From Adhaeribacter rhizoryzae (lineage in GTDB: Bacteria > Bacteroidota > Bacteroidia > Cytophagales > Hymenobacteraceae): 44,152 nucleotides of DNA. The stretch covers positions 1 to 44,152 of the forward strand of contig NZ_VWSF01000035.1 of assembly GCF_008629685.1 (NCBI RefSeq), read 5' to 3'. Of this stretch, positions 7,941 through 39,229 are shown one piece after another; the stretch's first letter is position 1; each line of letters opens with the position of its first letter. Below the pieces are notes generated by a model, which was given only the letters and a program-made list of their open reading frames with translations, was not told the DNA's origin and did no database searches. A program made the position numbers and the translations under genes.

Positions 7941-8077
7941 GTAATATTATGTAATAAACAATAAAGTAATATTCGTAATAAAATAATATTAGTAATATAA
8001 ATAGGTAAGTAATAAAGTAATATTATAAAAAAGCTACAATTGTTGTATGGGTTCTCTTTTCTTCCCTTTTGTAATAT
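7941..8077 (+). repeat. GTAATA repeat block 1
   Basis: Eight copies of GTAATA, all in the same orientation, start at 7941, 7951, 7966, 7975, 7992, 8009, 8017 and 8072. By hand estimate fewer than one is expected in DNA this AT-rich. The same hexamer is concentrated at the parA operon, at 10.2-10.8 kb and at 39.1 kb. Confidence 0.75.
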
Positions 8078-8141
8078 TCTTTTGTCGGCACCCGGCTTAG
8101 GGTATTTGGGATTGTTTGAATAAAAGGTTTAGCCATATAAG
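8042..8141 (+). repeat. 100-bp dispersed module, copy A
   Basis: It is about 75-80 percent identical by eye to 39282-39380. The best conserved core is TTCTCTTTTCTTCCCTTTTG, followed by GGCACCC and GCTTA. In both places it lies immediately after a GTAATA block. It does not encode a protein. Confidence 0.7.
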
Positions 8142-8236
8142 TAGAGGTATGAAAAATTGTTCTGCTAAAGCCTTGGTATTAGAAATCGAACTTAGAAATT
8201 GTAAGCAGGAAACTTATTACTGAATTCCTCTTTCTT

Positions 8237-8287
8237 AAAAGTAGGGTTTATCTGTAAATCGTGGCATTCGTACCATTCCCTACTTTT
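8237..8287. promoter_or_regulatory. 10-bp perfect stem upstream of a small gene
   Basis: AAAAGTAGGG (8237-8246) and CCCTACTTTT (8278-8287) are perfect inverted repeats with a 31-base loop, 50 bases before the 8337 start. It could be an RNA stem, an attenuator or an operator. Confidence 0.4.
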
Positions 8288-8336
8288 ATAATTAATACCA
8301 GTAGAACTATTCGAATGAGGGCCGGGTTCTAAACTT

Positions 8337-8627
8337 ATGGACAAGTTTGAAGCGTATGTTCTACCTTACTTAGTAAATAGCTATTTTAGGTATTTGGCTG
8401 ATGGGGAGGCCAAGTCGATGTCAGTAGAATATTTTCAGAAAAGCTTTACCAGCATAGCAGCTACGGAGCTGATCAATAGCGGGCAACGCTACTTCTATTA
8501 CCAGAATAAGGAAACCCTGGAATTAGTGATGCGCTTCCGAATTTCTCAGGCAGGAGGTTTGTCGGCTACGATGATGCGCTTTAGTGACTTTGAAAAACAA
8601 TTCTGCCATAAAACTGACAAGAAATAA
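8337..8627 (+). CDS. Hypothetical 96-residue protein
   Basis: A compact, soluble, charged protein without signal peptide or membrane segment. It opens MDKFEAYVLPYL and contains ELINSGQRYFYYQNKETLELVMRF. I do not recognise the family. It converges with the DUF3800-like gene, the two stops being only 8 bases apart. No clear ribosome binding site precedes the ATG, but Bacteroidota often lack one. Confidence 0.5.
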   Translation: MDKFEAYVLPYLVNSYFRYLADGEAKSMSVEYFQKSFTSIAATELINSGQRYFYYQNKETLELVMRFRISQAGGLSATMMRFSDFEKQFCHKTDKK

Positions 8628-8635
8628 CAACTTAA

Positions 8636-9829
8636 TTAAGACATCAGGTCCAAAGGAGGATGCGGCTGCTTGTCTTTATCCAAGGTTTTAATCAGCTCAT
8701 GCAGGATAGAATAGTTGGAGTTAGCTTGCAGCAGGTCTACTTGCTGTAAGCTGTTGACCAGGAGCTTGCGATTGCAAATATTCAGGCGGTTAATCATCGG
8801 CACAATGCTGTTGAGGTAACGGTTGTAAAAGCCGGCAATATCGGCTACCCTATCGGGTATTTTATAGCCAGACTTACCTTGTATACTCACTATCAGTACA
8901 CCATCATCTCGCAGGTGCTGAATACAAACCCGCAGTTGCTGCTCCGAGAAGTTGGGGAACACTTTTTTTAGTTTTTCAATTATTTCGTACTTCTCTACTA
9001 ATCTATCCGGTGCTGTGCGGAACATCAAGTATAAGTATTGTAATACCGCCTGCGCCTCTTCGGAAAGCCGGTGGTGTTGGGCTAAGGCTTCGCGGGCTGA
9101 GGCTGCTGCTATTTGGGCGATGAGCTCGTTTTTCTCCTGGTCATGTTCCGGAATAGATAGCAAGAAGTCGGTTTTCTCGAAAGGGAAAAAATCTACAAAA
9201 CTTCTATCGTGCAATAGGTCAAATAAGAAAGCGGCTTTTTCGTGGCTGTGGCTGGTGCAATAAATCTTACCTAAACAGCCGGCGATGAAATCCGCCAGTT
9301 GTACCAAGGGTTCTGCCAGTCTATCTTCTACCAACTGGTAAGTGCGGTCGGGGGTAAACAAATCCCGTTGAATGACTTTGGTCTGGATGTAATGCTGTAA
9401 GCTCCGCTGAAATCCGGGCCAGCCTACCTGGTCGGCATGGATGGAAAAGGAGGTAAAGTTTTGGGGGAATTGCTTGAGGAAGATGCGGTTGAAGTACTTG
9501 TAAAAAATCTCCTGTTGACTGAGCCCCTCTCCTACTACTTTGCTTTTATTGATTACTAGGCTAAGCACCAGAAAGTCCAGTTGCCGCAGCTCCTGCAAAA
9601 TAGCTACTTGCATTTGAAAGCCAAGCTCATCATCGGGTATCCGGCTGGACTGAATCGGATGTCCCTGGAAAAAGCGCTGGCTGATGTCCGCTTGCAGCTC
9701 TCGGGCTTGCATTAATTTCGCCTCTTCGATTAAGACGGCAGTCAGTACATAATGAGAGAAGCTGCCAGCTGGCTGCTGGTTTAAACTGGCATTGCCAAAC
9801 TCGGCCACAAAGAGGTGTAGGTGTTGCAT
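8636..9829 (-). CDS. DUF3800-like protein with C-terminal winged-helix region
   Basis: This is a 397-residue protein. The first 190 residues resemble DUF3800, a fold related to RNase H-like nucleases that is common in mobile elements. Visible are an opening strand LHLFVAEFGN, the acidic SIHADQVGW (about 119-127), and the typical closing QLADFIAG with D170. The usual opening acidic motif (YLDESG) is replaced by VAEFGN, so one acidic residue is shifted or lost. The second half (about 230-330) looks like a winged-helix part (KLKKVFPNFSEQQLRVCIQHL, then a DGVLIV wing). The role is unknown; nuclease or defence roles have been proposed for the family. Stands next to the replication and GTAATA regions. 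Confidence 0.6.
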   Translation of the reverse strand: MQHLHLFVAEFGNASLNQQPAGSFSHYVLTAVLIEEAKLMQARELQADISQRFFQGHPIQSSRIPDDELGFQMQVAILQELRQLDFLVLSLVINKSKVVGEGLSQQEIFYKYFNRIFLKQFPQNFTSFSIHADQVGWPGFQRSLQHYIQTKVIQRDLFTPDRTYQLVEDRLAEPLVQLADFIAGCLGKIYCTSHSHEKAAFLFDLLHDRSFVDFFPFEKTDFLLSIPEHDQEKNELIAQIAAASAREALAQHHRLSEEAQAVLQYLYLMFRTAPDRLVEKYEIIEKLKKVFPNFSEQQLRVCIQHLRDDGVLIVSIQGKSGYKIPDRVADIAGFYNRYLNSIVPMINRLNICNRKLLVNSLQQVDLLQANSNYSILHELIKTLDKDKQPHPPLDLMS

Positions 9830-10226
9830 AAACCTGGTACGTAAAGCAAAGCTATTATCTATCCAAGTTAAAAATTATTCTGGATGCCAGAAGACTTTCC
9901 GGTAGAAATTCTTTAGGGTGACGCTTTACTCTTTTATATAACGTATGCCTGATTGACAAGCTTACCCTTGCAGACTGCTTCCCTGGAAATTAGATTTGAA
10001 TCTTCTTTTCCCTTTTGTAATCTTTATCTAATATATCGAGAAACTGGTGACCAGGCTTATAAAGCAGTTATGGCGGTTGTTTGATTTAGTATATAAGTTA
10101 ATAATTAAATTTTAATTTATTATAAATCAGTGATTTATCAGAAGAACATTAGAATACTTTATTAATAGTAAAAAAAGGTTATTATACATATTTGTTATAA
10201 GTATTATTAAATTAATAAGTCCACAA

Positions 10227-10808
10227 TATTACTAATAATATAAGGTGTTAAGTAATATTAAATTACTGAAAGCGCAATAATATTTATGCATATATTAATT
10301 CGTTATACTATTACGCTATGCAATAGAATTCATAATTCTAGATTATTGGGAACATTACAAGCTTTTAATATAGTACTATCATAGGAGATTATTGCTTATA
10401 GTATAGTATTACTTAGCATATAATATTACTTTAATGCTGTATAATAATATATTACTTCATGAATTGTATATCTTCTATTATTTATATTCAATTATTGTTA
10501 AGAATAACCTATGTATTATAATCTAAAACATATTTATTACTAATAATATGTATGTATATTAAACTATTATCTTTATAAATAAATATTGCTAATATCTATT
10601 TATTACTAATCATATTGTATTACTTTAATTCGACGTAATATTTTAATCTTAGATAACTTTAGTAATCTTACTACTATATACTTCCATAACATTCCAACAT
10701 CATACATCTTTATTATTATAATTCTTTATTAGTAATATTGTTTTATTACTTATCATCTGATATTACCATCCGCATAAGTAATTAATATCAATCACCTTAT
10801 TTGTAATA
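10227..10808. repeat. GTAATA repeat block 2
   Basis: Fourteen hexamers were counted by eye: ten as TATTAC (10227, 10309, 10407, 10424, 10450, 10535, 10601, 10618, 10744, 10761) and four as GTAATA (10252, 10635, 10732, 10803). Roughly one is expected at this base composition. Several sit in longer TATTACTAAT contexts. It is the largest of the blocks and lies about 1.5 kb from the rep iterons. Confidence 0.7.
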
Positions 10809-10968
10809 TAATGTTACTATATTATCGATAAGATAAGATGATTCTGCTGACCGGTCTTTCCGCTACTAAGGTCCTGGTCTCAACTGGACCAGATGTTGGT
10901 ACCAAGTGACCCACCTGCTCATCAACTGCTTTTAATGGTTCTTCTTTGTTATCGGAAGTAAAGTGCCA

Positions 10969-11127
10969 ATGGCTACTATTTCATTTAACAAAGTGAGCAT
11001 ACGTGTCGTTTTCCAACCTGGTGCCTCCTTTTTACATCTATTCTCCGAAAGTGATTGTTCCGATAGTGGTGATTTAAAAGGAATGCTGTTTTCTCAGGCA
11101 ATAATCTACGGGTTACCGCTTGCCTGA
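10969..11127 (+). CDS. Possible 52-residue small protein
   Basis: An ATG at 10969 opens 52 codons ending TGA at 11125-11127. The protein begins MATISFNKVSIRVVFQPG and is mixed in composition. I know no relative. It sits in an otherwise non-coding stretch, 100 bases before the recombinase gene. It could be spurious. Confidence 0.25.
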   Translation: MATISFNKVSIRVVFQPGASFLHLFSESDCSDSGDLKGMLFSQAIIYGLPLA

Positions 11128-11144
11128 ATCCCTCAAAGCTGCTG

Positions 11145-11180
11145 TTTACATTACCACTACGAGCGTAGTGATAATGTAAA
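11145..11180. promoter_or_regulatory. 36-bp palindrome upstream of the recombinase gene
   Basis: TTTACATTACCACTACG (11145-11161) and CGTAGTGATAATGTAAA (11164-11180) pair with one mismatch in 17 across a 2-base centre. A dyad with a 2-bp centre is what a serine recombinase crossover site looks like, since the enzymes cut with a 2-base stagger. It could equally be an operator. The gene starts 49 bases downstream. Confidence 0.55.
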
Positions 11181-11229
11181 TAGAACGAATTTTCTTTATC
11201 TTTACCTGTAAAATTGGCAGACTTTACCC

Positions 11230-11910
11230 ATGCAGCAAACCAAGTACGTTACTTATATAAGAGTATCCACCAAAAAACAAGGAGAATCCGGATTGGGCTT
11301 GCAATCCCAGCAAACTTACCTGGACCATTTTTACAACGGGAAGAATATTATTGCCGAATTTACTGAAAATGTCAGCGGCAAGGATATTAGTAACCGGCCG
11401 AAGTTGCAGCAGGCCCTGGCCTTGTGCAAAAAAGAGAAGGCCGTGCTGGTGGTGGCCAAGATTGACCGGTTAAGCCGGAACACCGAGCAAGCACTTTGGA
11501 TTTATGCTGAATTGGATGGTAGGTTGGAGAGTTGTGATATTCCGAACCTGGATAAATTTACGCTTACATTGTTTATGGCCATCGCCGACCGGGAACGGGA
11601 GTTGATCAGCCTGAGAACCGCTAATGCTTTAGCGGAAAAAACCAAACGGCAGGGGGAGTGGCGGAAAGCAAGCACTCCCTTTACGGATAAGACCGCTAAT
11701 CACCTGGCCGTGGCGGTAAATAAAAATAAGGCTCGGGCAAATGAAAACAATAAGCGGGCAGCGGCACTTATCCAGTTGCACCGCCAACAAAATAAAGCCT
11801 GGAAAGAAATTGCTTTGGAACTAAACAATGCCGGATTTAAGGCCAGTAGGGGAGGGGCATTCCAGGCGGTGCAGGTGCAGCGAATCTACGAACGTTTAGC
11901 TAGTACTTAA
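11230..11910 (+). CDS. Serine recombinase (resolvase/invertase family)
   Basis: This is a 226-residue small serine recombinase. The N-terminal catalytic domain shows YIRVSTKKQ with Arg11 and the nucleophile Ser13, then AKIDRLSRN (76-84), and MAIADRERELISLRT on the long helix. A C-terminal DNA-binding part follows (about 165-226, LHRQQNKAWKEIALELNNAGFKASRGGAF), longer than in classic resolvases and resembling the Recombinase domain. On a plasmid the expected job is multimer resolution or DNA inversion. The palindrome 49 bases upstream is a candidate site. Confidence 0.88.
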   Translation: MQQTKYVTYIRVSTKKQGESGLGLQSQQTYLDHFYNGKNIIAEFTENVSGKDISNRPKLQQALALCKKEKAVLVVAKIDRLSRNTEQALWIYAELDGRLESCDIPNLDKFTLTLFMAIADRERELISLRTANALAEKTKRQGEWRKASTPFTDKTANHLAVAVNKNKARANENNKRAAALIQLHRQQNKAWKEIALELNNAGFKASRGGAFQAVQVQRIYERLAST

Positions 11911-12078
11911 GACCTGAAAGTCATTTGGTGTTTCCTCTGGGTGAAGAAAGCTGTGATAGGGTGAGTAAATAAAACATATATTTTAGCTGAGCACATCTAA
12001 CGCTTTGAGGCCCATTTTAAACATATGTAATTAAGATTTAAATATTTTAGAAGCCTTTCAGTAGATTTTATATTAAAA

Positions 12079-12262
12079 ACAGGTTTTATAAGTCAAGAAC
12101 CGAAAACACAGGTTTTATAAGCAACAAAAACAGATTTGATAAGCCTATAAACAGGTTTTATAAGTCAAACGACAAAAAACAGATTTGATAAGCCTATAAA
12201 CAGGTTTTATAAGCTTAAAAACAGATTTTATAAGCTAAACGACAAAAAACAGGTTTTATAAG
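12079..12262 (+). repeat. Iteron array downstream of rep (8 copies)
   Basis: Eight direct repeats of ACAGRTTTKATAAG start at 12079, 12108, 12130, 12151, 12179, 12200, 12221 and 12249. Start-to-start spacings are 29, 22, 21, 28, 21, 21 and 28, that is two or nearly three helical turns. Such arrays bind the Rep_3 initiator; together with the set upstream of rep this marks the replication origin region. The 170 bases before it (11911-12078) are AT-rich and show nothing else. Confidence 0.9.
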
Positions 12263-12263
12263 T

Positions 12264-13199
12264 CTATATGCCCAATGTTGTCCGAAAGTAACCCCCTGGG
12301 TTATTGATATCTTTCCGGCGGAGGGAAATATCGTAGAGGCATTTATTGGCTTTTTTCCGGAGCTCAGTACTATTAAGAATTTTGCTGATGAGGTTCGTGT
12401 CTAATATTCCAATATCCCTTAGACGTCCTTTCAACTGGGCTGCTTCCCGGTCCAATTCTTCAGACTCGAAAGGAATAACCGTTTGTACTTGGGAAACCAT
12501 TTTAATGGTGAAGGTAAGTTTGTGAATAGATTTACCTTTCTTTTCGGTTACCGCATAGGCCACCCTTAAATCCGATACTTCATTAATTTGCCGAATAGCC
12601 GGTTCTAACACATAATCTTTAAACTGTCCCCATTGCTTGTACTGTTCGGGCGCTTTACCAGACGGGTCTTTCAGGTTCAGCCGGTAGCGTAACTGCTCCA
12701 CTTCGAAAGTCATAGCACCTAAATCTTTCCACCTCGAAAACTGCACATAGAGCCATTTGGCGTACTTGGAAGTCATGGAAAGTACACAGAAGAGCTGGAA
12801 ACTGGTAAAATTGTTTTTTAGGTCTACCAGGTACGGCTTTAAATCTTCCGCAATAGAAAGTTGAATACGGCCTTGGCCTTTTAAATATTTGGCGCTGCTC
12901 ATCATGGCTACTTGCAGCAGTCCGTCTTCTTCTTCAATCTCGAACACCTTGCCAATCAGACCGGCAGTAGCTTCCCGCAACTGCTGGTAATTCCACTGCC
13001 GACCAGTTAACTCCTCGATTTCTTTAACGCTGATGGTATACTTGGTGTCCTTACTATCACCAGGCTTTAACCGGGAGAGCATCATAAAGTATATGTCCAG
13101 TTGCACCGCTGAAAGCTCGTGCCTGGCATTAGTTATTACATTATGATGCCGTACCTGGATTTTGGTTTCTTTAATTTCCAGCTGTTCCATGGGGCCCAA
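12264..13199 (-). CDS. Plasmid replication initiator, Rep_3 (RepB/RepE-like) family
   Basis: This 311-residue protein belongs to the Rep_3 superfamily of iteron-binding initiators, made of two winged-helix domains. The N-terminal domain is recognised by RHHNVITNARHELSAVQLDIYFMMLSRL and the YTISVKEIEELTG strand. The second carries SKYAKWLYVQFSRWKDLGAMTFEVEQLRYRL, the family's typical helix-strand pattern (FSKWLYRLLK...VELLRERL in relatives). It starts replication at the flanking iterons and probably represses its own promoter through the upstream array. The stop lies 2 bases from the last downstream iteron core. MEQLEIKE at codon 4 is an alternative start. Confidence 0.92.
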   Translation of the reverse strand: MGPMEQLEIKETKIQVRHHNVITNARHELSAVQLDIYFMMLSRLKPGDSKDTKYTISVKEIEELTGRQWNYQQLREATAGLIGKVFEIEEEDGLLQVAMMSSAKYLKGQGRIQLSIAEDLKPYLVDLKNNFTSFQLFCVLSMTSKYAKWLYVQFSRWKDLGAMTFEVEQLRYRLNLKDPSGKAPEQYKQWGQFKDYVLEPAIRQINEVSDLRVAYAVTEKKGKSIHKLTFTIKMVSQVQTVIPFESEELDREAAQLKGRLRDIGILDTNLISKILNSTELRKKANKCLYDISLRRKDINNPGGYFRTTLGI

Positions 13200-13253
13200 T
13201 TTATATAAAAGGCTTGAGAAAAAACAGAGACTTTAAGTATTTCTGTTTATTGA

Positions 13254-13353
13254 CTTATGAAATCTGTTTAATCAACTTATGAAATCTGTTTTTGTCGCTT
13301 ATCAAATCTGTTTATAAGCTTATGAAACCTGTTTATAGGCTTATTAAATCTGT
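13254..13353 (-). repeat. Iteron array upstream of rep (5 copies, inverted)
   Basis: Five copies of the same iteron in the opposite orientation (CTTATNAAAYCTGT on the + strand) start at 13254, 13276, 13298, 13319 and 13340, with 21-22 base spacing. They lie 55-154 bases upstream of the rep start, where the promoter should be, so they may serve both origin function and autorepression. Confidence 0.88.
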
Positions 13354-13552
13354 TTTGAAATTTACGTATCAGTTTAATAATCTGTGTCTTATGAGCCTTA
13401 CAAATAGATCAAATAATTCAAGTATTCACAAATTTGTGATCTGAATAAGGAATTTAGGGAGTTTTATTTGGCCACATACAATGAATCTGAGTGAACAAGT
13501 CAAAAAGGGAGCAAGTATCTGCTAAAGAGAGGAAACTGGGCCGCGCGAAAAA

Positions 13553-13566
13553 ACAGGTTTTATAAG
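13553..13566 (+). repeat. Solitary iteron
   Basis: ACAGGTTTTATAAG is a full match to the iteron core, in the orientation of the downstream array, 200 bases from the upstream array. It may be a handle for long-range Rep contacts, or a leftover. Confidence 0.7.
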
Positions 13567-13626
13567 CAGATAAGCTTCTCAATGGCTAAAAATATTAGTA
13601 AATCATAATGTGTCGGGCTAAGTTAA

Positions 13627-13755
13627 AGAAATAAAGTAAATGTTATTGCTTATTGTCAGGCCATTAAAAACGGCAACGTGGGAGCTATTCGGGAGCAGGA
13701 GCAACTGCGACGAGATTTAGAATCGAGCGATAGTAAAGAAGAGGACCAGTTATAA
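13627..13755 (+). pseudogene. Possible short coding remnant
   Basis: An open frame without an ATG reads AYCQAIKNGNVGAIREQEQL and continues with a strongly charged end to TAA at 13753-13755. Composition is protein-like, but start and family are missing. Probably a relic. Confidence 0.25.
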
Positions 13756-14059: not shown

Positions 14060-14071
14060 GCTATCGAAAAG

Positions 14072-15839: not shown

Positions 15840-15920
15840 TTTTGTCTTTTGTTGAATGATGAATCAAAGGTATAGCAGACACTTATCCTTTCTTTTGACA
15901 ATAGTCAAAAAAAATGAATA

Positions 15921-16834: not shown

Positions 16835-17010
16835 TGGATCTTCAGCTTATCTTCTTGTTTCCCTAAGAAGAAACCTAAATTTAAAAAGCCTAAAACTCCT
16901 ACCCAAACAATAATGGAAATCCAGTAGGTCCTGTTGCAGCAGGACAGGATATATAGTCCACTATTTTCTTTTAGGGGGTGCCACCTTAATTTCCCCATTT
17001 TTCTTTTCAT
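16819..17010 (-). CDS. Small single-helix membrane ORF overlapping the RHH gene
   Basis: A 63-residue frame whose first 17 codons overlap the 3' end of the RHH gene. The hydrophobic part (about 28-50, YWISIIVWVGVLGFLNLGFF) is a plausible membrane segment. A later start would remove most of the overlap. Unrecognised family; may be the front half of the next ORF. Confidence 0.3.
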   Translation of the reverse strand: MKRKMGKLRWHPLKENSGLYILSCCNRTYWISIIVWVGVLGFLNLGFFLGKQEDKLKIQCNPL

Positions 17011-17251
17011 ACTCCTCTATGTACGCAGACAAGGCAGCGTTTATCTGATCTTTAAGCAAGGTTCTATCCCAATAAGCTATTGCGGATATTTTATCCAGGT
17101 AATCTTCCCGAATAACAAAGGTAGTGCGGCGCTCGGGAAATTTGGTGGGCTCTACTGCTTCATTTGCTTCCTGCACTTCTTCCTGCTCCGCATTTTCTGT
17201 TGTACTCTGCAGCAATTTGCCTAATCCACCTGAGAAATTTTTCTTTGCCAT
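16961..17251 (-). CDS. Ribbon-helix-helix partition partner (ParB-like)
   Basis: This is a 96-residue protein. A flexible acidic N-terminal arm (about 1-36) precedes a ribbon-helix-helix-like core (RRTTFVIREDYLDKISAIAY, then LLKDQINAALSAYIEEYEKK, about 41-85) and a basic tail. Small RHH centromere-binding proteins encoded just after parA are typical of type Ib plasmid partition systems. The gene follows parA by 35 bases. A GTAATA hexamer (as TATTAC at 17260-17265) lies 9 bases upstream of its start. Confidence 0.7.
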   Translation of the reverse strand: MAKKNFSGGLGKLLQSTTENAEQEEVQEANEAVEPTKFPERRTTFVIREDYLDKISAIAYWDRTLLKDQINAALSAYIEEYEKKNGEIKVAPPKRK

Positions 17252-17286
17252 GTTACTGATATTACTATATGTTTTTTATTATTATG

Positions 17287-18057
17287 TTATCTTGTGCTTT
17301 TCTTCTTAGTATGCTTGGATAATATTTCTCCCGCTAATGCTTCATAATCGGCAGCGCCCGCGCTTTTACTATTGTAAGTAAAAATGTCCTGGCCAGTAGC
17401 CGGTGCCTCCGCCAAAGCAACATTATCGCGAATTTTAGTAGCAAAGACTTTTTTCGGAAAGTGTTCCGTGATGGTATCAAATACATTTTTATTCAGCACC
17501 TTCCGACTATCATATTGGGTAATGAAAACTCCACCTAACTCTAAGGATTTATTCAGCTGTTTCTGAATGATTGAAACCACTTCCAACATTTTGGCAAGTC
17601 CCTGCATAGCCAAGAACTCGGCCTGCAACGGGACCAGAATTCTATCCGAAGCAGTTAATGCATTAACCGTAAGCAAGCCCAGCGATGGAGGGCAGTCGAT
17701 TAAGATAAAGTCGTACTTCTTCTTTAAGGGTTCAATTGCTTCCCGCAAAATAAGCTCCCGGCCAATTTTGGTACTTAACTCTATTTCAGCACCGCTTAAA
17801 TCCAGGGTAGAAGGGATAACATCTAACCCAGGCCTAATAGTCAATATGGCATTGCCAGCGAGGTAATCGCCTTTAACGATGCCGTAAATGGTCTGGTCAG
17901 GTTCCTGAATGCCCAAGCTTTGCGATAAGTTAGCTTGCGGATCTAAGTCAATCAGCAAAACAGATTTACCCGCCCTATTAAGCGCGGCACCAATATTAAT
18001 GGTGCTGGTAGTTTTTCCGACACCACCCTTATGATTGAGAAGGGCAAAGACTTTCAT
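17287..18057 (-). CDS. parA: ParA-family plasmid partition ATPase
   Basis: This 256-residue protein is a Soj/ParA-type deviant Walker ATPase. Motifs are KGGVGKTT (10-17) with the signature lysine, LLIDLDPQANLSQSLG (Walker A'), and DFILIDCPPSLG (Walker B). It lacks the extra N-terminal DNA-binding domain of P1-type ParA, as in type Ib or chromosomal forms. It positions plasmid copies by ATP-dependent binding to the nucleoid and contact with the RHH partner. The upstream region has a TTACTAGTAA palindrome and three GTAATA sites, which suggests that the RHH protein autoregulates the operon. Confidence 0.92.
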   Translation of the reverse strand: MKVFALLNHKGGVGKTTSTINIGAALNRAGKSVLLIDLDPQANLSQSLGIQEPDQTIYGIVKGDYLAGNAILTIRPGLDVIPSTLDLSGAEIELSTKIGRELILREAIEPLKKKYDFILIDCPPSLGLLTVNALTASDRILVPLQAEFLAMQGLAKMLEVVSIIQKQLNKSLELGGVFITQYDSRKVLNKNVFDTITEHFPKKVFATKIRDNVALAEAPATGQDIFTYNSKSAGAADYEALAGEILSKHTKKKSTR

Positions 18058-18180
18058 ATGTTACTTTATAACTTTGTTACTAGTAATCTCCAAAATAATG
18101 GAATGTTAACCAATAAAAAAAGTTACTTATTAATATCTTGTTAAAAGTAATAAATATGCTTGATATTACTATGTTATTAC
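18058..18180. promoter_or_regulatory. parA upstream region with palindrome and GTAATA sites
   Basis: TTACTAGTAA (18077-18086) is a perfect 10-bp palindrome 20 bases before the parA start. GTAATA is at 18147, and TATTAC at 18164 and 18175. These match the hexamer of the dispersed repeat blocks and are the natural place for operator or centromere binding by the RHH partner. Confidence 0.55.
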
Positions 18181-18344
18181 ATAGTGAATATTTTTTTATT
18201 ACTAAATCATTGGTAAAATAGATTGCTTTGGTCACAAATAAAACCGATAAATCAAGAATAGGTAAGTTGATGAGACAGCTGCATGCCTGAAGTGACAAAC
18301 AATGTTTTTACAAAAGGGAAGAAAAAGCTTGTTTTTGTTGATAA

Positions 18345-18394
18345 ATAAATATATACAAAATATTCTTTTTTGTACAGAAAACGTATATATTTAT
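18345..18394 (+). promoter_or_regulatory. Inverted-repeat promoter-like element upstream of ardC
   Basis: ATAAATATATA (18345-18355) and TATATATTTAT (18384-18394) are perfect 11-bp inverted repeats around a 28-base spacer. A 31-base core (18363-18393), ending GAAAACGTATATATTTA, recurs with 3-4 mismatches at 19679-19709. On a single transferred strand the repeats could fold into a hairpin, as in plasmid leading-region promoters (inference). Confidence 0.45.
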
Positions 18395-19641: not shown

Positions 19642-19678
19642 CTTATAAAATTTTAAATTTCCACTATTTAATAGGATG

Positions 19679-19709
19679 TTCTTTTTTAGATAGAAAACGT
19701 ATATATTTA
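19679..19709 (+). repeat. Second copy of the ardC upstream element
   Basis: This 31-base segment ends GAAAACGTATATATTTA and differs from 18363-18393 at only 3-4 positions. It lies about 145 bases upstream of the small gene at 19853 and just after a terminator, the position of a promoter. Confidence 0.6.
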
Positions 19710-25907: not shown

Positions 25908-28352
25908 ATGAAAGCCAAAGAATTTTCCCGACCCTTCATAGGTATTAAAACCTATGCCTACGCTGTACTTTTTCATGAGAAAAGCGACCATTCGGTTATT
26001 ATAAAAATTACCAATCCGGTATTGCAATATTCCGCTGACGTTGCCGCCTACCAGGATTTTCACCATGTTTTCAGCAACATTATTAAAATCCTGGGAGCTG
26101 GGTATACGGTTCAGAAGCTGGATATCCTGGCCTTAAAGAAGTTCAGGGGGAAGGCGTCCGCGGATTATTTAAGCCAAAAATACAACGAGGCTTTTACCGG
26201 CCGGGAATACCGGGATATTACCACTTATCTCACCATCACCCGGAATGTGAAGCGGACCACATTTTTTACCTACGACGAAAAAGATTTTAAGAATTTTGAG
26301 CGCAATGTAGCCAAGGTAGTGGATGTGCTGCAGAATCGTAACTTTCAGCCGGTCCCTTTAAAAGAAAAGGAGATAATAAGCCTGCTGAACCGGTTTGTGG
26401 CCTTTAATTTTTCCGATGAAGTTTATTCCTTTAACAATTTCTCCGCTTCGGAGGAGAGCATCAAAATCGGTAACCGTACGGTTAAAAGTATTTCGCTGGT
26501 GGACATTGACGAAATTAATTTTCCGGCTACCATCAAGCCCCACACCGATCTGAATTTAGGTTATAGCTTACCGGTGGATCTGATGCACTTTCTGCATGCG
26601 ATACCCGGTACCAACTGTATTGCCTATAACCAAACCATCCAGATACCAGACCAGCGCCTGGAACTGGCCAAGCTTGCGGCTAAAAGAAAAAAGCATACTT
26701 CCATGCCAGACCCGGCCAATGATTTGGCCGTGGCAGATATTGACCGGGTAATGACCGATATAGCCAGGGACAATCAACTGCTGGTATTCGGCCACTATAA
26801 CATTATCCTTTCGGCCCCTGACCAGGTGATTGATAGGGCTACCAATTACCTGGAAAGCAGCCTGTTTAGTTTTGGCATCATTCCCTCCAAGCAAGCCACT
26901 AACCAACTGGAGCTTTTCCGGGCCGCTATTCCCGGCAACCAGGAGGAGTTGAAACACTACGATAAATTTCAGACCACCACTGATGCCGCCATTTGCCTGC
27001 TGTTTAAGGAAAGCCTGCTCCAGGATGAGGCCTCCGAATTTCAGATTTTGTTTTCGGACCGGCAAGGCATCCCGGTTGCCATTGACACCAGTGATCTACC
27101 TATTCATACCCAGCGCATGAATAACCGGAACAAGTTTGTGCTGGGGCCCTCGGGTACCGGTAAGTCCTTTTTCATGAACCACATGATTCGGCAATATGCG
27201 CTGCAGGACACGGATATTATCCTGGTAGATACCGGCCACAGCTACTCCGGGCTGTGCCAGTACTACGGTGGCCGCTACATTACTTACAGCGAAGAAAAGC
27301 CCATTACCATGAACCCTTTCCGGATTGTGCGGGAGGAGTTTAACGAAGAAAAGCGGGAGTTCTTAAAATCACTCATCGGCTTACTCTGGAAAGGTGCGGC
27401 AGGCGCTGTCAACCAAATAGAGGATAGCGTTATCTCCTCGGTGATATCGGCCTACTACGAGGATTTTTATGCCCAACAAAGAGAGGCCAGGTACCTTTCT
27501 TTTCAGTCCTTTTATGATTTCTCTATTTCCAAAATCGCGGAGATAACCGAAAAGGAAACCATTGAATTCGACCTGAAAAGTTACCGGTTCATTCTGAAGA
27601 AGTTTTGTTTAGCCGGCGAGTATGGGGCCATCCTGAACAATGAAATGGATTCCAGTCTGTTTGACGATAGGTTTATTGTTTTTGAGATAGATGCCATCAA
27701 AGAGCATAAAATACTTTTCCCGCTTACCACCATCATTATTATGGACGTGTTCCTGCAGAAAATGCGTCATAAGAAGAACCGCAAGGCTTTAATTATTGAA
27801 GAAGCCTGGAAAGCCATTGCCTCGCCGCTGATGGCCGGTTACATCCTGTATGTTTATAAAACGGTCCGAAAATTTTGGGGTGAGGCGGTGGTCGTCACCC
27901 AGGAGCTGGATGATATTATCGGCAATGCGGTGGTAAAGAACAGCATTATCAATAACTCGGACACCATCTGTCTGCTGGACCAGACCAAATTCAAAGACAA
28001 CTTCTCAGAAATTGCCAACCTGCTCGCACTGAATGAAGTGGAGCAAAATAAAATCTTCACGATTAACAACCTGGACAACCACGAGGGCCGGGGCCGCTTC
28101 AAAGAGGTTTATATCAAGCGGGGAGCCAGGGGCGAAGTGTATGGGGTAGAAGTTTCCCTGCACGAGTATCTCACCTTTACCACGGAGCGCAAAGAAAAGG
28201 AAGCGGTGGCGCTTTACCTGCAGCAATACCCTAGCTATCAGGAAGCATTAGACAGGTTCGTGCAGGACTTCCGGCAATCAGGCCTAAAGCTAAATGACTT
28301 CACCAATCTTATAAATCGGCAATATCATGAAAAAGTATTTCTACCTGCTTAG
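25908..28352 (+). CDS. traG: TraG, VirB4-like conjugation ATPase
   Basis: This 814-residue protein is the energising ATPase of the transfer channel. The N-terminal 400 residues are the VirB4/CagE-type domain. Walker A is GPSGTGKS at about 413-420, followed by DIILVDTGHSY. Walker B is in KALIIEEAWKA at about 620, and a sensor-like VVVTQELDDI follows. An in-frame TTG nine bases upstream is possible, but ATG at 25908 gives the family-like start (MKAKEFSRPFIGI). It overlaps the next gene by 26 bases, which suggests translational coupling. Confidence 0.93.
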   Translation: MKAKEFSRPFIGIKTYAYAVLFHEKSDHSVIIKITNPVLQYSADVAAYQDFHHVFSNIIKILGAGYTVQKLDILALKKFRGKASADYLSQKYNEAFTGREYRDITTYLTITRNVKRTTFFTYDEKDFKNFERNVAKVVDVLQNRNFQPVPLKEKEIISLLNRFVAFNFSDEVYSFNNFSASEESIKIGNRTVKSISLVDIDEINFPATIKPHTDLNLGYSLPVDLMHFLHAIPGTNCIAYNQTIQIPDQRLELAKLAAKRKKHTSMPDPANDLAVADIDRVMTDIARDNQLLVFGHYNIILSAPDQVIDRATNYLESSLFSFGIIPSKQATNQLELFRAAIPGNQEELKHYDKFQTTTDAAICLLFKESLLQDEASEFQILFSDRQGIPVAIDTSDLPIHTQRMNNRNKFVLGPSGTGKSFFMNHMIRQYALQDTDIILVDTGHSYSGLCQYYGGRYITYSEEKPITMNPFRIVREEFNEEKREFLKSLIGLLWKGAAGAVNQIEDSVISSVISAYYEDFYAQQREARYLSFQSFYDFSISKIAEITEKETIEFDLKSYRFILKKFCLAGEYGAILNNEMDSSLFDDRFIVFEIDAIKEHKILFPLTTIIIMDVFLQKMRHKKNRKALIIEEAWKAIASPLMAGYILYVYKTVRKFWGEAVVVTQELDDIIGNAVVKNSIINNSDTICLLDQTKFKDNFSEIANLLALNEVEQNKIFTINNLDNHEGRGRFKEVYIKRGARGEVYGVEVSLHEYLTFTTERKEKEAVALYLQQYPSYQEALDRFVQDFRQSGLKLNDFTNLINRQYHEKVFLPA

Positions 28353-32785: not shown

Positions 32786-32786
32786 T

Positions 32787-33578: not shown

Positions 33579-33584
33579 GCAGCG

Positions 33585-35579: not shown

Positions 35580-35910
35580 ACGCCTGCAAATGCTTAGGAA
35601 GGCGATGGAACTTTCTCAAAAAGAACTGGCAGCGACGTTGGAGGTACAGCAAAACCAGATATCACGCTTAGAAAATGGAATAGGAGGAACCCTGGAGATG
35701 CTCCTGCAGCTCGTTAATTATTACGGAGAACACTTTCACCTACATTCCATGTTTTCAGAGGAATTTGAAGTTATAAAAAAATCTGAAAATTTATCCCAAC
35801 CGCTAGTTTACAACAGTATTGCGGTAGAGCGGTTGAAACTTTTAAAAACAGAGTTCTCGGACCAGATAACCGATATTATCAGCATTATCGAAAAGGAAGG
35901 GAGTTGTTAG
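35551..35910 (+). CDS. XRE-family helix-turn-helix regulator
   Basis: A 119-residue protein with an N-terminal XRE/Cro-type HTH (about 8-62: LGERLQMLRKAMELSQKELA, then VQQNQISRLENG) and a helical C-terminal part probably for dimerisation. It starts inside the end of the coupling-protein gene and is thus translated with the transfer operon, so it could give feedback control on transfer genes, for instance through the GTATATAC-type palindromes (inference). It converges with the M23 peptidase gene, overlapping it by 4 bases. Confidence 0.85.
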   Translation: MNLTITDLGERLQMLRKAMELSQKELAATLEVQQNQISRLENGIGGTLEMLLQLVNYYGEHFHLHSMFSEEFEVIKKSENLSQPLVYNSIAVERLKLLKTEFSDQITDIISIIEKEGSC

Positions 35911-36545
35911 TTGCCGCTGTTTTTTTTTCGGGCTTGTAATTTCAGGGTCCGGTAAATTATATCTAAAAAAGGGACGGGGTCTATGTTCTGGCCTCGGTGC
36001 CTGATGGCAAAGTGCAAATGGTCTCCGGTGCTTCTGCCGGTGCTACCAGTTATACCGATGACGATGCCGGCATTTAATTTCATTTTTTCCCGGACCATCA
36101 CCAAAGACAGATGGCCGTAGGTGGTTTGAAAATCACCGTGCTTCACCTCAATATAGTTTCCCAAGCCTCGGGAATAAGCCACTTTATTTACTTCCCCTGG
36201 CATAATGACCATTACCGAATCAGCATACCCCCTGAAGTCGATGCCATCATGAAACTTTTCTTTGCCCGTTAAAGGGTCTACCCGATACCCAAAATGACTA
36301 TTAATAACCGGCCTGGAAAGCGGCATGGAAACCCCGGTGCCAGTGGGGCCTGCTACCGGTTTAAATCTGGTGGAGTCAATCGCTTGTAAAGGCGATGTTA
36401 TCGCCACTATCCCTGTCCTGGCTGTAGCCGCATCCACTTGTACCTGCGGCAGATTTTTTACCTGCTTAATCGTGTTGAACTGGCCGTAGACAGCTGTGTA
36501 AAAAGCCACTACAGGAACAATAAATAGTGTTTTTAGCGTTTTCAT
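35907..36545 (-). CDS. M23-family peptidoglycan endopeptidase
   Basis: A 212-residue exported protein with a signal peptide (about 1-21) and a LytM/M23 domain (about 80-200). The metal ligands are H99 and D103 in KFHDGIDF and H178 in DHLHF, with the catalytic His145 in TYGHLS. It cuts peptide cross-links in the cell wall. Wall hydrolases in conjugative elements locally open peptidoglycan for the transfer channel, which fits its position beside the tra genes, though it is on the opposite strand and so separately expressed. Confidence 0.9.
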   Translation of the reverse strand: MKTLKTLFIVPVVAFYTAVYGQFNTIKQVKNLPQVQVDAATARTGIVAITSPLQAIDSTRFKPVAGPTGTGVSMPLSRPVINSHFGYRVDPLTGKEKFHDGIDFRGYADSVMVIMPGEVNKVAYSRGLGNYIEVKHGDFQTTYGHLSLVMVREKMKLNAGIVIGITGSTGRSTGDHLHFAIRHRGQNIDPVPFLDIIYRTLKLQARKKNSGN

Positions 36546-36685
36546 ATATTGTATATAATGTTTGCAATTATACTTATATGGTATATAAAAAAGAAATAAT
36601 TTTGGTTGCTGGTCAGTAAATCCTCTTATAATATGTATATTTACTCAAATATAATTCTTAAAAATACATTTAAATAATATCTGCT
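36546..36685. promoter_or_regulatory. Divergent promoter region with a GTATATA site
   Basis: This very AT-rich gap separates two divergent genes. ATTGTATATAAT (36548-36559) is a near palindrome two bases from the peptidase start, and a second GGTATATAAAA follows at about 36580. They resemble the sites at 21136 and 24117. Confidence 0.45.
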
Positions 36686-37336
36686 ATGAGTTTCCAAATT
36701 AAAGATTTGCCGTACGCTCAATTTGAGCAGTTGGGAATGAGTAGAAGGGATGTAATTACCATGCAACCTCAGGACTTGGCCGATTTGCTTAACGGGCACC
36801 GGACGGGTTTAATCTCTTTGAAAATTCAATTGGGAGAAGGGATGAAGCCGATGCAGACCCAGGCTAAGCTGAGCCTCACCCGCAACCCGGATAATACCTT
36901 GTCATTGGGTGTTCATCCCATTCTGGCTAAACCAATAAATACCATTGAGGCCTCGCCTGAGCAATGGGCTAAAATGCTGACCGGGGAGCCGATTGTAAAA
37001 GCGTCTAAGTCCTATAACGGCACCATAGAACCCCATCTGCACCAGTTGGATAAAGACACAAAAGAAATTCTAAGTGCCCGGGTAGGGGCCATTCAGATAC
37101 CGCATTCTATCCAGGACACCGTATTAACGCCGGCGCAGAAAGAGCAATTAAGAAACGGGCTGGCCATAGAAATTGAAGGCAAGGCCACCAAAGAAGCTAT
37201 TGTTGTCCGGCTCGATTTAAATGAGAGCAGAGGTTACATCATAACGTCCGTTGAACAAGCCAGGGAGCAAGGCCGCAATTCCAATTTAGATGTTACAAAA
37301 GGGAAAGAAAATGTAAGCCGGGGTATTAAAATGTAA
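36686..37336 (+). CDS. DUF4099/DUF3945-like mobile-element protein
   Basis: A 216-residue soluble protein. The lead LPYAQFEQLGMSRRDVITMQPQDLADLLNG and the later IEASPEQWAKMLTGEPIVK are typical of DUF4099/DUF3945 proteins carried by Bacteroidetes conjugative elements, often next to a TOPRIM/primase gene. The gene ends 5 bases before such a gene here, so the two probably work together in DNA processing after transfer. The biochemical role is unknown. Confidence 0.65.
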   Translation: MSFQIKDLPYAQFEQLGMSRRDVITMQPQDLADLLNGHRTGLISLKIQLGEGMKPMQTQAKLSLTRNPDNTLSLGVHPILAKPINTIEASPEQWAKMLTGEPIVKASKSYNGTIEPHLHQLDKDTKEILSARVGAIQIPHSIQDTVLTPAQKEQLRNGLAIEIEGKATKEAIVVRLDLNESRGYIITSVEQAREQGRNSNLDVTKGKENVSRGIKM

Positions 37337-37341
37337 AAGTC

Positions 37342-38448
37342 ATGACTTTTCAGGACTACCGAGAGAACGTTCCCATAACCGCAGTGGCGGAATCTTTGGG
37401 CTACCGGGTTGATTTGAAAAAGGGACGCGTAACCCTGGAATTTAAGCACCCGGATGGCGATACCGTTCTGATTGACCCAGCCAGAAAGCTTTATTATAAT
37501 CGGAATGGTACCCAGGACCGGGGGGATATAATAGAGTTCGTGAAAAATAGGCTCGATAAGTTTAACATTAGCTATGAACACCCCATTAACGGCGTAAATA
37601 AGGTACTCCAAACCTATGTAAACGAGTCTCAGTGCATTCCTATAAAGTACACCCCCCCTGCGCCGATAGCATTTGATACAAGCCGCTTCGAAGCTCCTAA
37701 AGCTTCTGTGTTTAAATTGCACTATCTCATCCAGGAAAGAGGGTTGGATATGGATACGATAAAGCGGTTTTCTCCCTTTATTCACTTGGTTAAGGATACG
37801 CAAGAAACCACCGGCAGACCCTACGAGAACATAGGGTTCCCTCTGACCAAACCAGGCAGTGAAATAATAGTGGGATGGGATTTACGGAATTATGGTTTTA
37901 AAGGAGTAGCCGCGGGCAGTGACCGGCAGAACGGAATGTGGATAGCTGATTTTGTAGGCAGCCCGGCGCGCACCAGGAACGTTCTATTTGGGGAGAATCC
38001 CATTGACCTAATGAGCTTCTACCAGCTATATAAACATAAGCTTGATTTAGATAACGCCGCTTTTATTTCTTTTGGCGGCGGTATAGCCAAGGGCCAGTTA
38101 CAGGGAGCTGTAAGGTATTGGGCTGATGTAAAAAAACATACGGCCTTTGATAATGACTATCAAGGCAAAATGTACGATATCGCTTTGGCCATCCACGTAA
38201 CCGGCAAGGATGTTCCTTTACCGCAGAAATTGGCGGATAGCCTTTTGTTTAAAGTGGAAGGCAAAAGCTTTGAAATTCCGGTAGATAAGATAAGCCTGGC
38301 TAGGTTTGAAAAGGCTTCCGGCATCCGGTCAAACGTGACTGTGCATAAAGCTACGGGTGGGAACAGGAATGGAATACCATTTAAGGATTTTAATGATATT
38401 ATTCATCCAAAAAATGCCTCTCAAATAAACAAAATAAAGCTACGATAG
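37342..38448 (+). CDS. TOPRIM/primase-like protein (TraP or DUF3991-like)
   Basis: A 368-residue protein. The N-terminal region (about 1-75) has the form of a CHC2-type primase lead without the zinc cysteines (VAESLGYRVDLKKGRVTLEF, then RGDIIEFVK). A DUF3991-like part follows, and then a TOPRIM-like core (FGENPIDLMSFYQLYKHKLD, with the acidic E and a TAFDNDYQGKMYD motif for DxD). Such proteins are thought to prime the complementary strand of transferred DNA in the recipient. It follows the DUF4099-like gene by 5 bases. Confidence 0.72.
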   Translation: MTFQDYRENVPITAVAESLGYRVDLKKGRVTLEFKHPDGDTVLIDPARKLYYNRNGTQDRGDIIEFVKNRLDKFNISYEHPINGVNKVLQTYVNESQCIPIKYTPPAPIAFDTSRFEAPKASVFKLHYLIQERGLDMDTIKRFSPFIHLVKDTQETTGRPYENIGFPLTKPGSEIIVGWDLRNYGFKGVAAGSDRQNGMWIADFVGSPARTRNVLFGENPIDLMSFYQLYKHKLDLDNAAFISFGGGIAKGQLQGAVRYWADVKKHTAFDNDYQGKMYDIALAIHVTGKDVPLPQKLADSLLFKVEGKSFEIPVDKISLARFEKASGIRSNVTVHKATGGNRNGIPFKDFNDIIHPKNASQINKIKLR

Positions 38449-38472
38449 TAAATATCCTTAAAGCCTACTTCC

Positions 38473-38910
38473 ATGAAAAGTTTATCGTACTTAAGTAGCA
38501 TTTTAGCACTGTTTCTTTTGCTAGCTAGTTGTGGTAAGGATGGTTCTGACCCAACACCCAATACAGCCTCTTTCCGGGTAGACTTCAATCAAAGCGGAGA
38601 TTATGAGAAATTCAATAAAATTATTTCTATCAGCGGAGGAGAGTTTAAATATAGGGGTACCAACGACATAGTGCCGGCAGCTTTAATCGGCGATGATTTA
38701 AAGGCTGCTAGTTTCTCTATAGAAGCGGACAATGTAGAAGAATTAGAAATTTCGACAATAACCGGGTTTTCTCCGGTTCAGTCTGGTCCTGCTACTATGA
38801 CCATGAAGTTTACCGTCTATAAGAATGGGGTATTGCTGGATGAGAAAAGCTTTACTTATACAGAAGTAACAAGAGACAAAAGCGAGGATCTTAATTATAA
38901 GGCTAATTGA
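38473..38910 (+). CDS. Small lipoprotein
   Basis: A 145-residue protein with a lipoprotein signal (LLLASC, acceptor Cys20) followed by a flexible GKDGSDPTPN linker and a beta-sandwich-like domain (FRVDFNQSGDYEKF, MTMKFTVYKNGVLLDEKSFTY). I recognise no family. It follows the TOPRIM-like gene by 24 bases on the same strand. Small lipoproteins in this position may act in entry exclusion or surface contact, but that is a guess. Confidence 0.6.
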   Translation: MKSLSYLSSILALFLLLASCGKDGSDPTPNTASFRVDFNQSGDYEKFNKIISISGGEFKYRGTNDIVPAALIGDDLKAASFSIEADNVEELEISTITGFSPVQSGPATMTMKFTVYKNGVLLDEKSFTYTEVTRDKSEDLNYKAN

Positions 38911-38988
38911 AAGGGCTAGATTCCGTTGAGATTATTGTTAAAAGTTAGCTAAAAATAACTGACAGCAATTGGTTAGCAGGCTGTCTAA

Positions 38989-39053
38989 CTGGTATCAGCG
39001 TCCGGTCCGATGGATACCAGAAGCCAGGTACCGGAAATGCGGGTAAGTTCCGG
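38989..39053. other. GC-rich segment with two perfect stems
   Basis: CTGGTATC (38989-38996) pairs with GATACCAG (39013-39020), and CCGGAA (39031-39036) with TTCCGG (39048-39053). The segment stands out in an AT-rich, non-coding 500-base stretch (38911-39417) and precedes a GTAATA block, as does a CCGG-rich patch at 7.9 kb. It could be part of a partition/origin module or a small RNA. Confidence 0.45.
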
Positions 39054-39131
39054 ACCAGCGAACGACCGTTGGCAAGGCGCCCAGCCGGGGAATACGTTGC
39101 CCACCGCTAGTATTTTCTTTTTAGCTGATGA

Positions 39132-39229
39132 GTAATATTGTATTACTATGTTTTTATAGGGCTCAGTAATATTATCTTATTTGTGTGCCGAATTATTATA
39201 TGATAAGTAATAAAGAATCATAAGTAATA
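39132..39229. repeat. GTAATA repeat block 3
   Basis: GTAATA starts at 39132, 39166, 39207 and 39224, and TATTAC at 39141. The order of GC-rich patch, GTAATA block and pyrimidine-rich module is the same as at 7.9-8.1 kb. Confidence 0.65.

What the first reader, a model, noticed from the sequence alone, without database searches (positions are those of the whole stretch)
7941..39229. Dispersed GTAATA modules that may be the plasmid centromere
The hexamer GTAATA (or TATTAC) is packed into non-coding DNA: eight same-strand copies at 7941-8077, fourteen at 10227-10808, five at 39132-39229, three in the parA upstream region (18147-18180), and one just before the RHH gene (17260). The first two blocks hold far more than the roughly one copy or fewer expected from base composition (hand estimate). 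RHH partition proteins of type Ib systems bind short repeated half-sites both at their own promoter and at the centromere. The idea is that the RHH protein at 16961-17251 binds GTAATA, and that this plasmid has several centromere-like sites spread over about 31 kb instead of one parS. Unlinked multiple sites in a type Ib-like system would be unusual.
Basis: partly seen in the sequence, partly recalled or inferred. Interest (0 to 1): 0.75.

Follow-up and report, generated by a model that had tools for sequence, protein, structure and literature searches.

The report
Dispersed partition-protein arrays on a plasmid
Short DNA words repeated at about 8.4-base steps in several places on this soil-bacterium plasmid are very probably landing strips for the small protein that helps hand plasmid copies to daughter cells, and one of them, lying kilobases away from that protein's gene, is kept in the same place on related plasmids.

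Summary
GTAATA copies: 8 (7941-8076), 14 (10227-10808, 10 minus/4 plus), 5 (39132-39229), 4 rather than 3 upstream of parA (18147-18202), 1 at 17260. Contig-wide density (13.6/10 kb) is ordinary for this genome; clustering and spacing are not. Pooled over the blocks, spacings fit an 8.4-bp lattice (8 of 27 neighbouring gaps are exactly 17 bp), absent from 300 kb sampled elsewhere in the genome. Three related Adhaeribacter plasmids, pooled, repeat it (8.3 bp), mainly at block 2, whose sequence hardly aligns. The RHH protein belongs to an unnamed family encoded beside ParA in 18 of 25 retrieved loci; in 17 compared loci outside the genus, AGTAA sites are crowded at 9-bp steps, with two or more upstream of parA in 14 and in the parA-RHH junction in 15. 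Three contigs with block 2's neighbour gene but no RHH gene in the stretch read lack arrays. So GTAATA is very probably one dimer site of this protein; block 2 is the best centromere candidate; blocks 1 and 3 are paralogous extra arrays. A Pontibacter relative also has four arrays away from par. Binding and segregation are inferred. Dispersed sites have a precedent: pSM19035 has six.

The parts
16961..17251 (-). RHH partner protein (ParB-like centromere-binding protein), 96 aa, N-terminal KKNFSGGLGKLL motif
   Evidence: AlphaFold2 pLDDT 87 for residues 41-50 and 92-96 for 51-90, helices 49-62 and 66-85; Foldseek rows mostly RHH proteins to my knowledge, incl. ParG 1p94 (rmsd 1.0 over 42 columns), CopG, Arc, AmrZ, best E 0.6; family alignments
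17287..18057 (-). ParA ATPase, 256 aa
   Evidence: Pfam AAA_31 8.7e-59; 95% identical ParA in two Adhaeribacter plasmids
17251..17266 (-). parA-RHH junction array: two units 9 bp apart, AGTAATA and AGTAACA, the second sharing its last base with the RHH start codon (AGTAACATG)
   Evidence: three relatives have 2-3 units in the same place, the last also at the ATG
18059..18203 (.). parA-upstream array: 4 GTAATA plus GTAACA/AGTAA units
7941..8022 (+). Block 1: 7 same-strand GTAATA units (an eighth at 8071-8076), the densest array of the contig
   Evidence: the only phased chain of 4 or more that the chain scans call in the window
10227..10818 (.). Block 2: 14 GTAATA plus degenerate units in AT-rich non-coding DNA between a DUF3800-type gene and a serine resolvase gene; best candidate for the main centromere
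   Evidence: position conserved in three Adhaeribacter relatives, sequence hardly alignable
39131..39238 (.). Block 3: 5 GTAATA plus one AGTAACA; paralogue of block 1
   Evidence: 74% identity over 158 alignment columns between 39194-39341 and 7945-8099
8062..8074 (+). CT-rich box TTCCCTTTTGTAA beside block 1
10008..10020 (+). CT-rich box beside block 2
18308..18320 (-). CT-rich box beside the parA-upstream array
   Evidence: also in three relatives
39304..39316 (+). CT-rich box beside block 3

Best explanation
This is a ParA/RHH (type-I RHH-ParB, formerly type Ib) plasmid partition system. Each GTAATA (core AGTAA) is the site of one RHH dimer; dimers sit side by side at about 8.4-bp steps on either strand along AT-rich DNA. 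Short arrays at the parA promoter and at the RHH start codon shut down the par genes (autoregulation); remote arrays, above all block 2, serve as the centromere on which RHH dimers gather, and their N-terminal FSGGLGKLL tails contact ParA on the nucleoid so that plasmid copies are moved apart. Blocks 1 and 3 are copies of one array and probably add centromere capacity and control of the small genes downstream. Shown here: sites, lattice, conservation, gene family, predicted fold. Inferred: binding, repression, ParA contact, segregation.
For: GTAATA is the most enriched hexamer in the four window blocks pooled (32 vs 5.4, z 11.9), and AGTAAT and GTAATA rank 1 and 3 in the three relatives' block 2 pooled. 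Lattice: window 43 pairs, best period 8.4, mean cosine 0.68, 0 of 2000 jittered controls; relatives (three block-2 equivalents and two parA upstreams) 29 pairs, 8.3, 0.68, 0 of 2000; own-genome control 37 pairs, cosine 0.08 at 8.4. Chain scan of two whole relative plasmids (136 and 141 kb): the only chain of 6 or more in each is at block 2; 0 chains of 4 or more in 300 kb of own-genome samples. Block 2 does not align by blastn to rad or g003 and only over 68 columns to swu, while flanks are 75-87% identical: the lattice stays while the sequence turns over. RHH family beside ParA in 18 of 25 loci. In 17 compared loci outside the genus: parA upstream 59 sites vs 14.6 in mononucleotide shuffles (two or more in 14 of 17), same-strand period 8.7, 0 of 1000; junction 63 vs 8.9 (two or more in 15 of 17), same-strand period 9.0, cosine 0.915, 0 of 1000. 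Three contigs with the same DUF3800-type gene but no RHH gene in the 40 kb read: 0 chains of 4 or more, and 0, 0 and 3 GTAATA in 1.4 kb upstream of that gene against 14, 10, 7, 14 in the RHH-bearing ones. Four ParA systems with other partners show only single AGTAA sites, by eye.
Against: No binding or stability data. The lattice in blocks 2 and 3 is sparse: chain scans with minimum 4, 5 or 6 do not call window blocks 2, 3 or the par array, and with shorter allowed gaps rad has no chain while swu and g003 have one each; in pSM19035 at least four contiguous repeats are needed to stimulate ParA fully (PMC9499535 passages). GTAATA pairs on opposite strands are not significantly phased in the window (281 of 2000 controls reach the value) nor in the other loci (70 and 243 of 1000). 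Sites outside the blocks in rad and swu, 15 pairs, have cosine 0.37 at 8.4 (no control run). Blocks 1 and 3 were not found in the relatives, of one of which only 40 of 209 kb was held. In block 2 alone ACCAGG (4 copies) outranks GTAATA. The three RHH-less controls are less AT-rich upstream (GC 0.34-0.37 vs 0.27-0.29), two of them belong to genomes that have an RHH gene elsewhere (own C29; G002:C1, 45% identical), and G002 has 3 GTAATA vs 1.0 expected. The window RHH has no arginine before residue 41, so the arginine finger of ParG is not evident. No Pfam or NCBIfam family reaches its cut-off. The lattice was noticed in the window before it was tested there. RHH dimers were not modelled; the monomer model shows no beta strand.
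Confidence: 0.72

Rival explanations
1. The RHH protein binds all these arrays, but only the par-proximal arrays (parA upstream and junction) act as centromere; blocks 1-3 are operators of a plasmid-wide regulon.
For: Blocks 1 and 3 lie upstream of small ORFs at 8337 and 39418; the 8337 protein has relatives in 5 of 60 family genomes searched, its own counted, so it looks like a real gene (39418 was not searched). In Pontibacter and Tenacibaculum a chain overlaps or directly precedes the start of a helicase-like gene (annotated DnaB-like helicase in Tenacibaculum). A complete 14.4-kb Flavobacterium plasmid has chains of 4 only at parA upstream and junction.
Against: Block 2 is the only chain of 6 or more in two whole relative plasmids; both flanking genes start about 400 bp from it, and about 590 bp with 14 GTAATA is large for an operator (inference).
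Confidence: 0.2
2. The arrays are sites of another plasmid protein (serine resolvase, Rep_3 initiator, MobC) or a replication element.
For: A resolvase gene lies next to block 2 in all four Adhaeribacter contigs; MobC is also an RHH-type protein (recalled).
Against: The initiator has its own 21-bp iterons at 12073-12268 and 13242-13355; a Flavobacterium plasmid with no serine recombinase listed has the arrays at parA and the junction; two RHH-less contigs with a 38-43% resolvase relative near the same DUF3800-type gene have no chain of 4 or more.
Confidence: 0.05
3. Chance or composition: AT-rich intergenic DNA rich in GTAATA.
For: Contig-wide density is like that of the rest of the genome.
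Against: Dinucleotide shuffles, lattice, conservation and RHH co-occurrence.
Confidence: 0.02

Closest known systems
pSM19035 delta/omega (ParA/RHH ParB) with six parS arrays
   Same: ParA plus small RHH protein; tandem non-palindromic short units in direct and inverted orientation; several separate arrays that overlap promoters (PMC9499535 passages, PMC5016525 passages and type Ib section)
   Different: Unit there is a contiguous 7-bp WATCACW; here AGTAA(TA) at 8.4-9 bp with gaps; there three parS that each occur twice, here a remote array of about 590 bp kept in place plus two paralogous arrays; proteins not detectably related by sequence beyond a 17-residue match at E 0.59
TP228 ParF/ParG with parH and OF
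   Same: RHH partner with flexible N-terminus; degenerate short boxes with AT-rich spacers, repeats at centromere and operator region (PMC7308502, PMC5389482 and PMC5016525 passages); predicted fold superposes on ParG 1p94, E 2.8
   Different: parH is one continuous site upstream of the operon; box letters of ParG are recalled, not read; different protein family by sequence
PrgP/PrgO (pCF10) and RepB/RepC (pAD1) of enterococcal plasmids
   Same: The PrgO model is among the nearest curated families, far below cut-off (E 0.0018 and 0.0048 for two of five proteins scanned); I recall 8-bp TAGTARRR iterons for pAD1, which would resemble AGTAA units
   Different: No match for the window protein; the recalled iteron was not found in the papers searched and not seen beside the ParA of one E. 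faecium pRUM-like plasmid
HTH ParB/parS CTPase systems
   Same: N-terminal GGLxSLL tail resembles the GL-rich N-terminus of chromosomal ParB (recalled)
   Different: No HTH or CTPase family found in the partner; array of short units, not a palindromic parS

Membership tests
Type-I RHH-ParB (type Ib) partition system | ParA-type deviant Walker ATPase without N-terminal HTH extension | tested here: met
   Pfam AAA_31, 256 aa with KGGVGKT at residue 10
Type-I RHH-ParB (type Ib) partition system | Small RHH centromere-binding protein encoded next to parA | tested here: met
   By prediction only: confident helices and RHH-dominated Foldseek rows, but best E 0.6 and no strand assigned in the monomer; 2 of 20 family members touch Pfam Antitox_RHH (best 2.3e-4) and 2 RHH_3; adjacency to ParA in 18 of 25 loci
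Type-I RHH-ParB (type Ib) partition system | Flexible N-terminus with arginine-finger-like motif acting on ParA | tested here: inconclusive
   Residues 1-40 low confidence (pLDDT 42-57); GGL present in 12 of 20 aligned rows but no arginine before residue 41 in the window protein
Type-I RHH-ParB (type Ib) partition system | Array of short direct/inverted repeats at operator and centromere | tested here: met
   Lattice statistics and conservation; that they are operator and centromere is inferred
Type-I RHH-ParB (type Ib) partition system | RHH protein binds the array and represses the operon; system stabilises plasmid | not testable with these tools
   needs experiment
pSM19035 omega family | 7-bp WATCACW contiguous heptads | tested here: not met
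   Unit AGTAA/GTAATA, period 8.4 bp in Adhaeribacter and about 9 bp elsewhere
PrgO (NF041284) | Score above curated cut-off 100 bits | tested here: not met
   No hit for the window protein; 17.1 and 18.5 bits for two relatives
HTH-ParB/parS | ParB with HTH and CTPase domain | tested here: not met
   No Pfam family at E 0.001 in the partner; RHH-like model

The most novel reading that the evidence does not exclude
A distributed centromere: in an unnamed, mainly Bacteroidota family of ParA-RHH systems, the segregation site is not one parS but a set of 8.4-9-bp lattice arrays that drift across the plasmid (block 2 kept in place in Adhaeribacter, blocks 1/3 duplicated in this contig, four other places in Pontibacter), so that one RHH protein at once segregates the plasmid, bridges distant plasmid sites, and couples helicase and par expression to partition.
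Probability: 0.35. Interest if true: 0.65.

Novelty: new variant of a known kind. Interest (0 to 1): 0.52.

Why it matters
The listings of my literature searches (a partial, open-licence library) showed no experimental account of a ParA-RHH centromere in Bacteroidota. The family seen here (N-terminal FSGGLxSLL in most full-length members, RHH core, no Pfam or NCBIfam name) comes with a readable DNA code (AGTAA units at 8.4-9 bp). That makes centromere prediction, incompatibility tests and stable vectors for these bacteria directly testable, and gives a second case beside pSM19035 for asking why some RHH systems use several separated arrays.

Tried and rejected
Plain hexamer counting against the rest of the genome: rejected as evidence, since the contig-wide density is ordinary. 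Resolvase res site: considered because the resolvase gene is block 2's neighbour; a separate near-palindrome at 11142-11183 is a better res candidate. Replication iterons: the initiator has its own 21-bp repeats. Chain scans: useful for relatives but they call only block 1 in the window. The CT-rich box TTCCCTTTTGTAA was first taken as a fixed companion of the arrays; it also occurs exactly twice in 40 kb of RHH-less G001:C24, one copy inside an IS3-family match, and inside or near coding DNA in the window and relatives, so it is not tied to the RHH system. In one search two near-identical Tenacibaculum loci (L065, L066) were dropped before counting; parA starts there were set by the nearest ATG to the Walker motif, and L069 and perhaps others are placed too far downstream, so that the upstream piece lies inside the gene. 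In one search seven of 25 loci had no ParA found on the + strand of the piece held (one starts 28 bases before its match). TAGTARRR iterons of pAD1 and the box letters of ParG are recalled, not read.
Full report
What the window is. The window is the whole of contig C29 (44,152 bp) of a draft genome of 53 contigs. It is collinear with two named Adhaeribacter plasmids, NZ_CP055152 (A. radiodurans, 'rad') and NZ_CP055154 (A. swui, 'swu'), and with a 40-kb piece of the 209-kb contig C2 of an unnamed congener (G003, 'g003'). It carries conjugation genes (by match to the annotated relatives), a Rep_3 initiator with 21-bp iterons on both sides, a serine resolvase, ParA (17287-18057) and, just downstream, a 96-aa protein (16961-17251).

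The observation. Counts and coordinates are right with small corrections: four, not three, copies upstream of parA; block 2 is mixed in strand, 10 minus and 4 plus. Against 2000 dinucleotide-preserving shuffles, none reaches blocks 1 and 2, p is 0.0005 for block 3 and 0.0025 for the parA upstream. The contig-wide count does not set the contig apart: 15 samples of 20 kb from 15 other contigs of the genome, five of them chosen for holding an AGTAATA pair, have 6.5 to 17.5 copies per 10 kb against 13.6 here.

Phasing. Gaps between neighbouring GTAATA copies include 8, 9, 17, 25 and 26; 8 of 27 neighbouring gaps within blocks are exactly 17, with at least one in each of the four blocks. All pairs within 60 bp, pooled, best fit a period of 8.4 bp (43 pairs, mean cosine 0.68; 0 of 2000 controls in which each site was moved by up to 5 bp reach it). 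Split by strand, same-strand pairs are significant (30 pairs, 0 of 2000), opposite-strand GTAATA pairs are not (13 pairs, 281 of 2000). Three block-2 equivalents and two parA upstreams of the relatives give 8.3 bp (29 pairs, 0.68, 0 of 2000) (all). The own-genome samples show none (37 pairs, cosine 0.08 at 8.4). Sites outside the blocks in rad and swu (15 pairs) have cosine 0.37, without a control. The window fit is partly circular, because I saw the spacing first; the relatives are the fresh test, though they share ancestry with the window.

Conservation without alignment. Between a DUF3800-annotated gene and the resolvase gene all four Adhaeribacter contigs have about 1.2-1.4 kb of AT-rich non-coding DNA. 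Its flanks are 75-87% identical, but block 2 itself does not align by blastn to rad or g003, and only 68 columns align to swu. GTAATA counts in the 1.4 kb before the DUF3800 gene are 14, 10, 7 and 14 against about 3 in shuffles. A scan of both whole relative plasmids for phased chains of six or more found one each, at this place, and none in g003; with shorter allowed gaps and a minimum of four, swu and g003 have one each there and rad none. Neither scan calls window blocks 2 or 3; both call block 1. Selection seems to keep the lattice while the sequence turns over.

The protein. The 96-aa protein has no Pfam family at E 0.001 and no NCBIfam family at 0.1; two of 20 family members touch Pfam's Antitox_RHH (best 2.3e-4). 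Its predicted core (residues 41-90) is confident, and the Foldseek rows are, to my knowledge, mostly RHH proteins (CopG, Arc, AmrZ, ParG at 1.0 A over 42 columns), though the best E-value is 0.6 and the lone chain shows no strand. A collection scan gave 25 loci with a relative; 18 have a ParA gene in the piece held. Twelve of 20 aligned rows have the N-terminal GGL motif, as in MSKKNFTGGLNSLLG. Members come mostly from Bacteroidota, and also from bins labelled Planctomycetales, Clostridium and Oligoflexia among others, and from Lawsonia.

Arrays follow the protein. In 17 loci outside Adhaeribacter (16 of the 18 plus one Flavobacterium plasmid; two near-identical loci dropped), AGTAA-type sites number 59 in 2,380 bases upstream of parA against 14.6 in mononucleotide shuffles, with two or more in 14 of 17, and 63 in 1,429 bases of the parA-RHH junction against 8.9, with two or more in 15 of 17. 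Same-strand pairs have a period of 8.7 bp upstream (cosine 0.53) and 9.0 bp in the junction (0.915), each with 0 of 1000 controls; pairs of opposite strands are not significantly phased (70 and 243 of 1000). In the window and its three relatives the last junction unit runs into the RHH start codon (AGTAACATG or AGTAATATG). Three contigs that carry the same DUF3800-type gene (75-85% identical) but no RHH or closely related ParA in the 40 kb read, own C25, G001:C24 and G002:C4, have no chain of four or more (two have one chain of three), and 0, 0 and 3 GTAATA upstream of that gene. Their upstream DNA is less AT-rich, and two of these genomes hold an RHH gene on another contig. Four ParA systems with other partners show single AGTAA sites but no array, by eye.

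Several separate arrays. Blocks 1 and 3 are paralogues (74% over 158 columns); block 1 finds only itself and block 3 in the own genome, and neither was found in the relatives held. In Pontibacter ummariensis the piece around the RHH gene has four phased chains of four or more, 2.5 to 8 kb from parA; three lie outside the ORFs of 90 aa or more that were listed and one overlaps the start of an 819-aa ORF that looks like a primase/helicase. A Tenacibaculum plasmid has one at the start of its DnaB-like helicase gene. So separate arrays recur. They are known in pSM19035, where six parS arrays overlap the promoters of copS, delta and omega (PMC9499535 passages) and one appears to be the main centromere (PMC5016525, type Ib section). 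That review places type Ib centromeres upstream of the par operon, so a conserved array 6 kb downstream is a departure.

How it most likely works. RHH dimers, one per AGTAA(TA) unit, line up on the lattice as omega does on heptads. Arrays at the parA promoter and RHH start give autoregulation; block 2 is the best candidate for the main centromere; blocks 1 and 3 add sites and perhaps control of nearby small genes. The conserved GGLxSLL tail probably touches ParA. Binding, repression and segregation are inferred from anatomy and comparison only.

A second element. TTCCCTTTTGTAA occurs beside blocks 1, 2, 3 and the parA array, beside block 2 and parA of the relatives (one mismatch at swu block 2), and, with one mismatch, beside a Pontibacter array; 300 kb of own-genome samples hold no exact copy and two with one mismatch. 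A 17-base form has three exact copies in the 6.5-Mb genome, all on this contig next to blocks 1, 3 and parA, and four more with one mismatch elsewhere. The 13-mer also occurs twice in RHH-less G001:C24 and in coding DNA, so its role is open.

Noticed in passing
1-123 and 44030-44152: The contig ends are an exact 123-bp inverted repeat, so the contig probably stops in a repeated element and is not a closed circle.
   Followed up: no
8062, 10008, 18308, 39304 (also 6076, 37293): CT-rich box TTCCCTTTTGTAA recurs beside the three blocks and the parA array, in relatives too, yet also in an RHH-less contig and in coding DNA.
   Followed up: partly
11142-11183: Near-palindrome of 42 bp just upstream of the resolvase gene, a possible res or crossover site.
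   Followed up: no
12073-12268 and 13242-13355: 21-bp iterons on both sides of the Rep_3 initiator gene, mutually inverted.
   Followed up: no
18360-18393 and 19676-19709: 34-bp similarity (88%) that may be a shared promoter.
   Followed up: no
L023 (p5482), upstream of parA at 26695: Bacteroides plasmid with 58% identical ParA has AGTAT units 8 bp apart before parA and a partner starting with a GGLDSLI motif; not tested statistically.
   Followed up: no
L021 14106-14199: In a Tenacibaculum plasmid the 9-bp array runs across the annotated start of parA (14174), in steps of three codons, so the ParA start is uncertain there.
   Followed up: no
G000:C25:17405-18592: The same genome carries a second DUF3800-type gene, 85% identical, on another contig without RHH or arrays in the 40 kb read.
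   Followed up: partly
L022 6351-6461: A chain of six phased sites in another Tenacibaculum plasmid, away from its (split) RHH gene.
   Followed up: no
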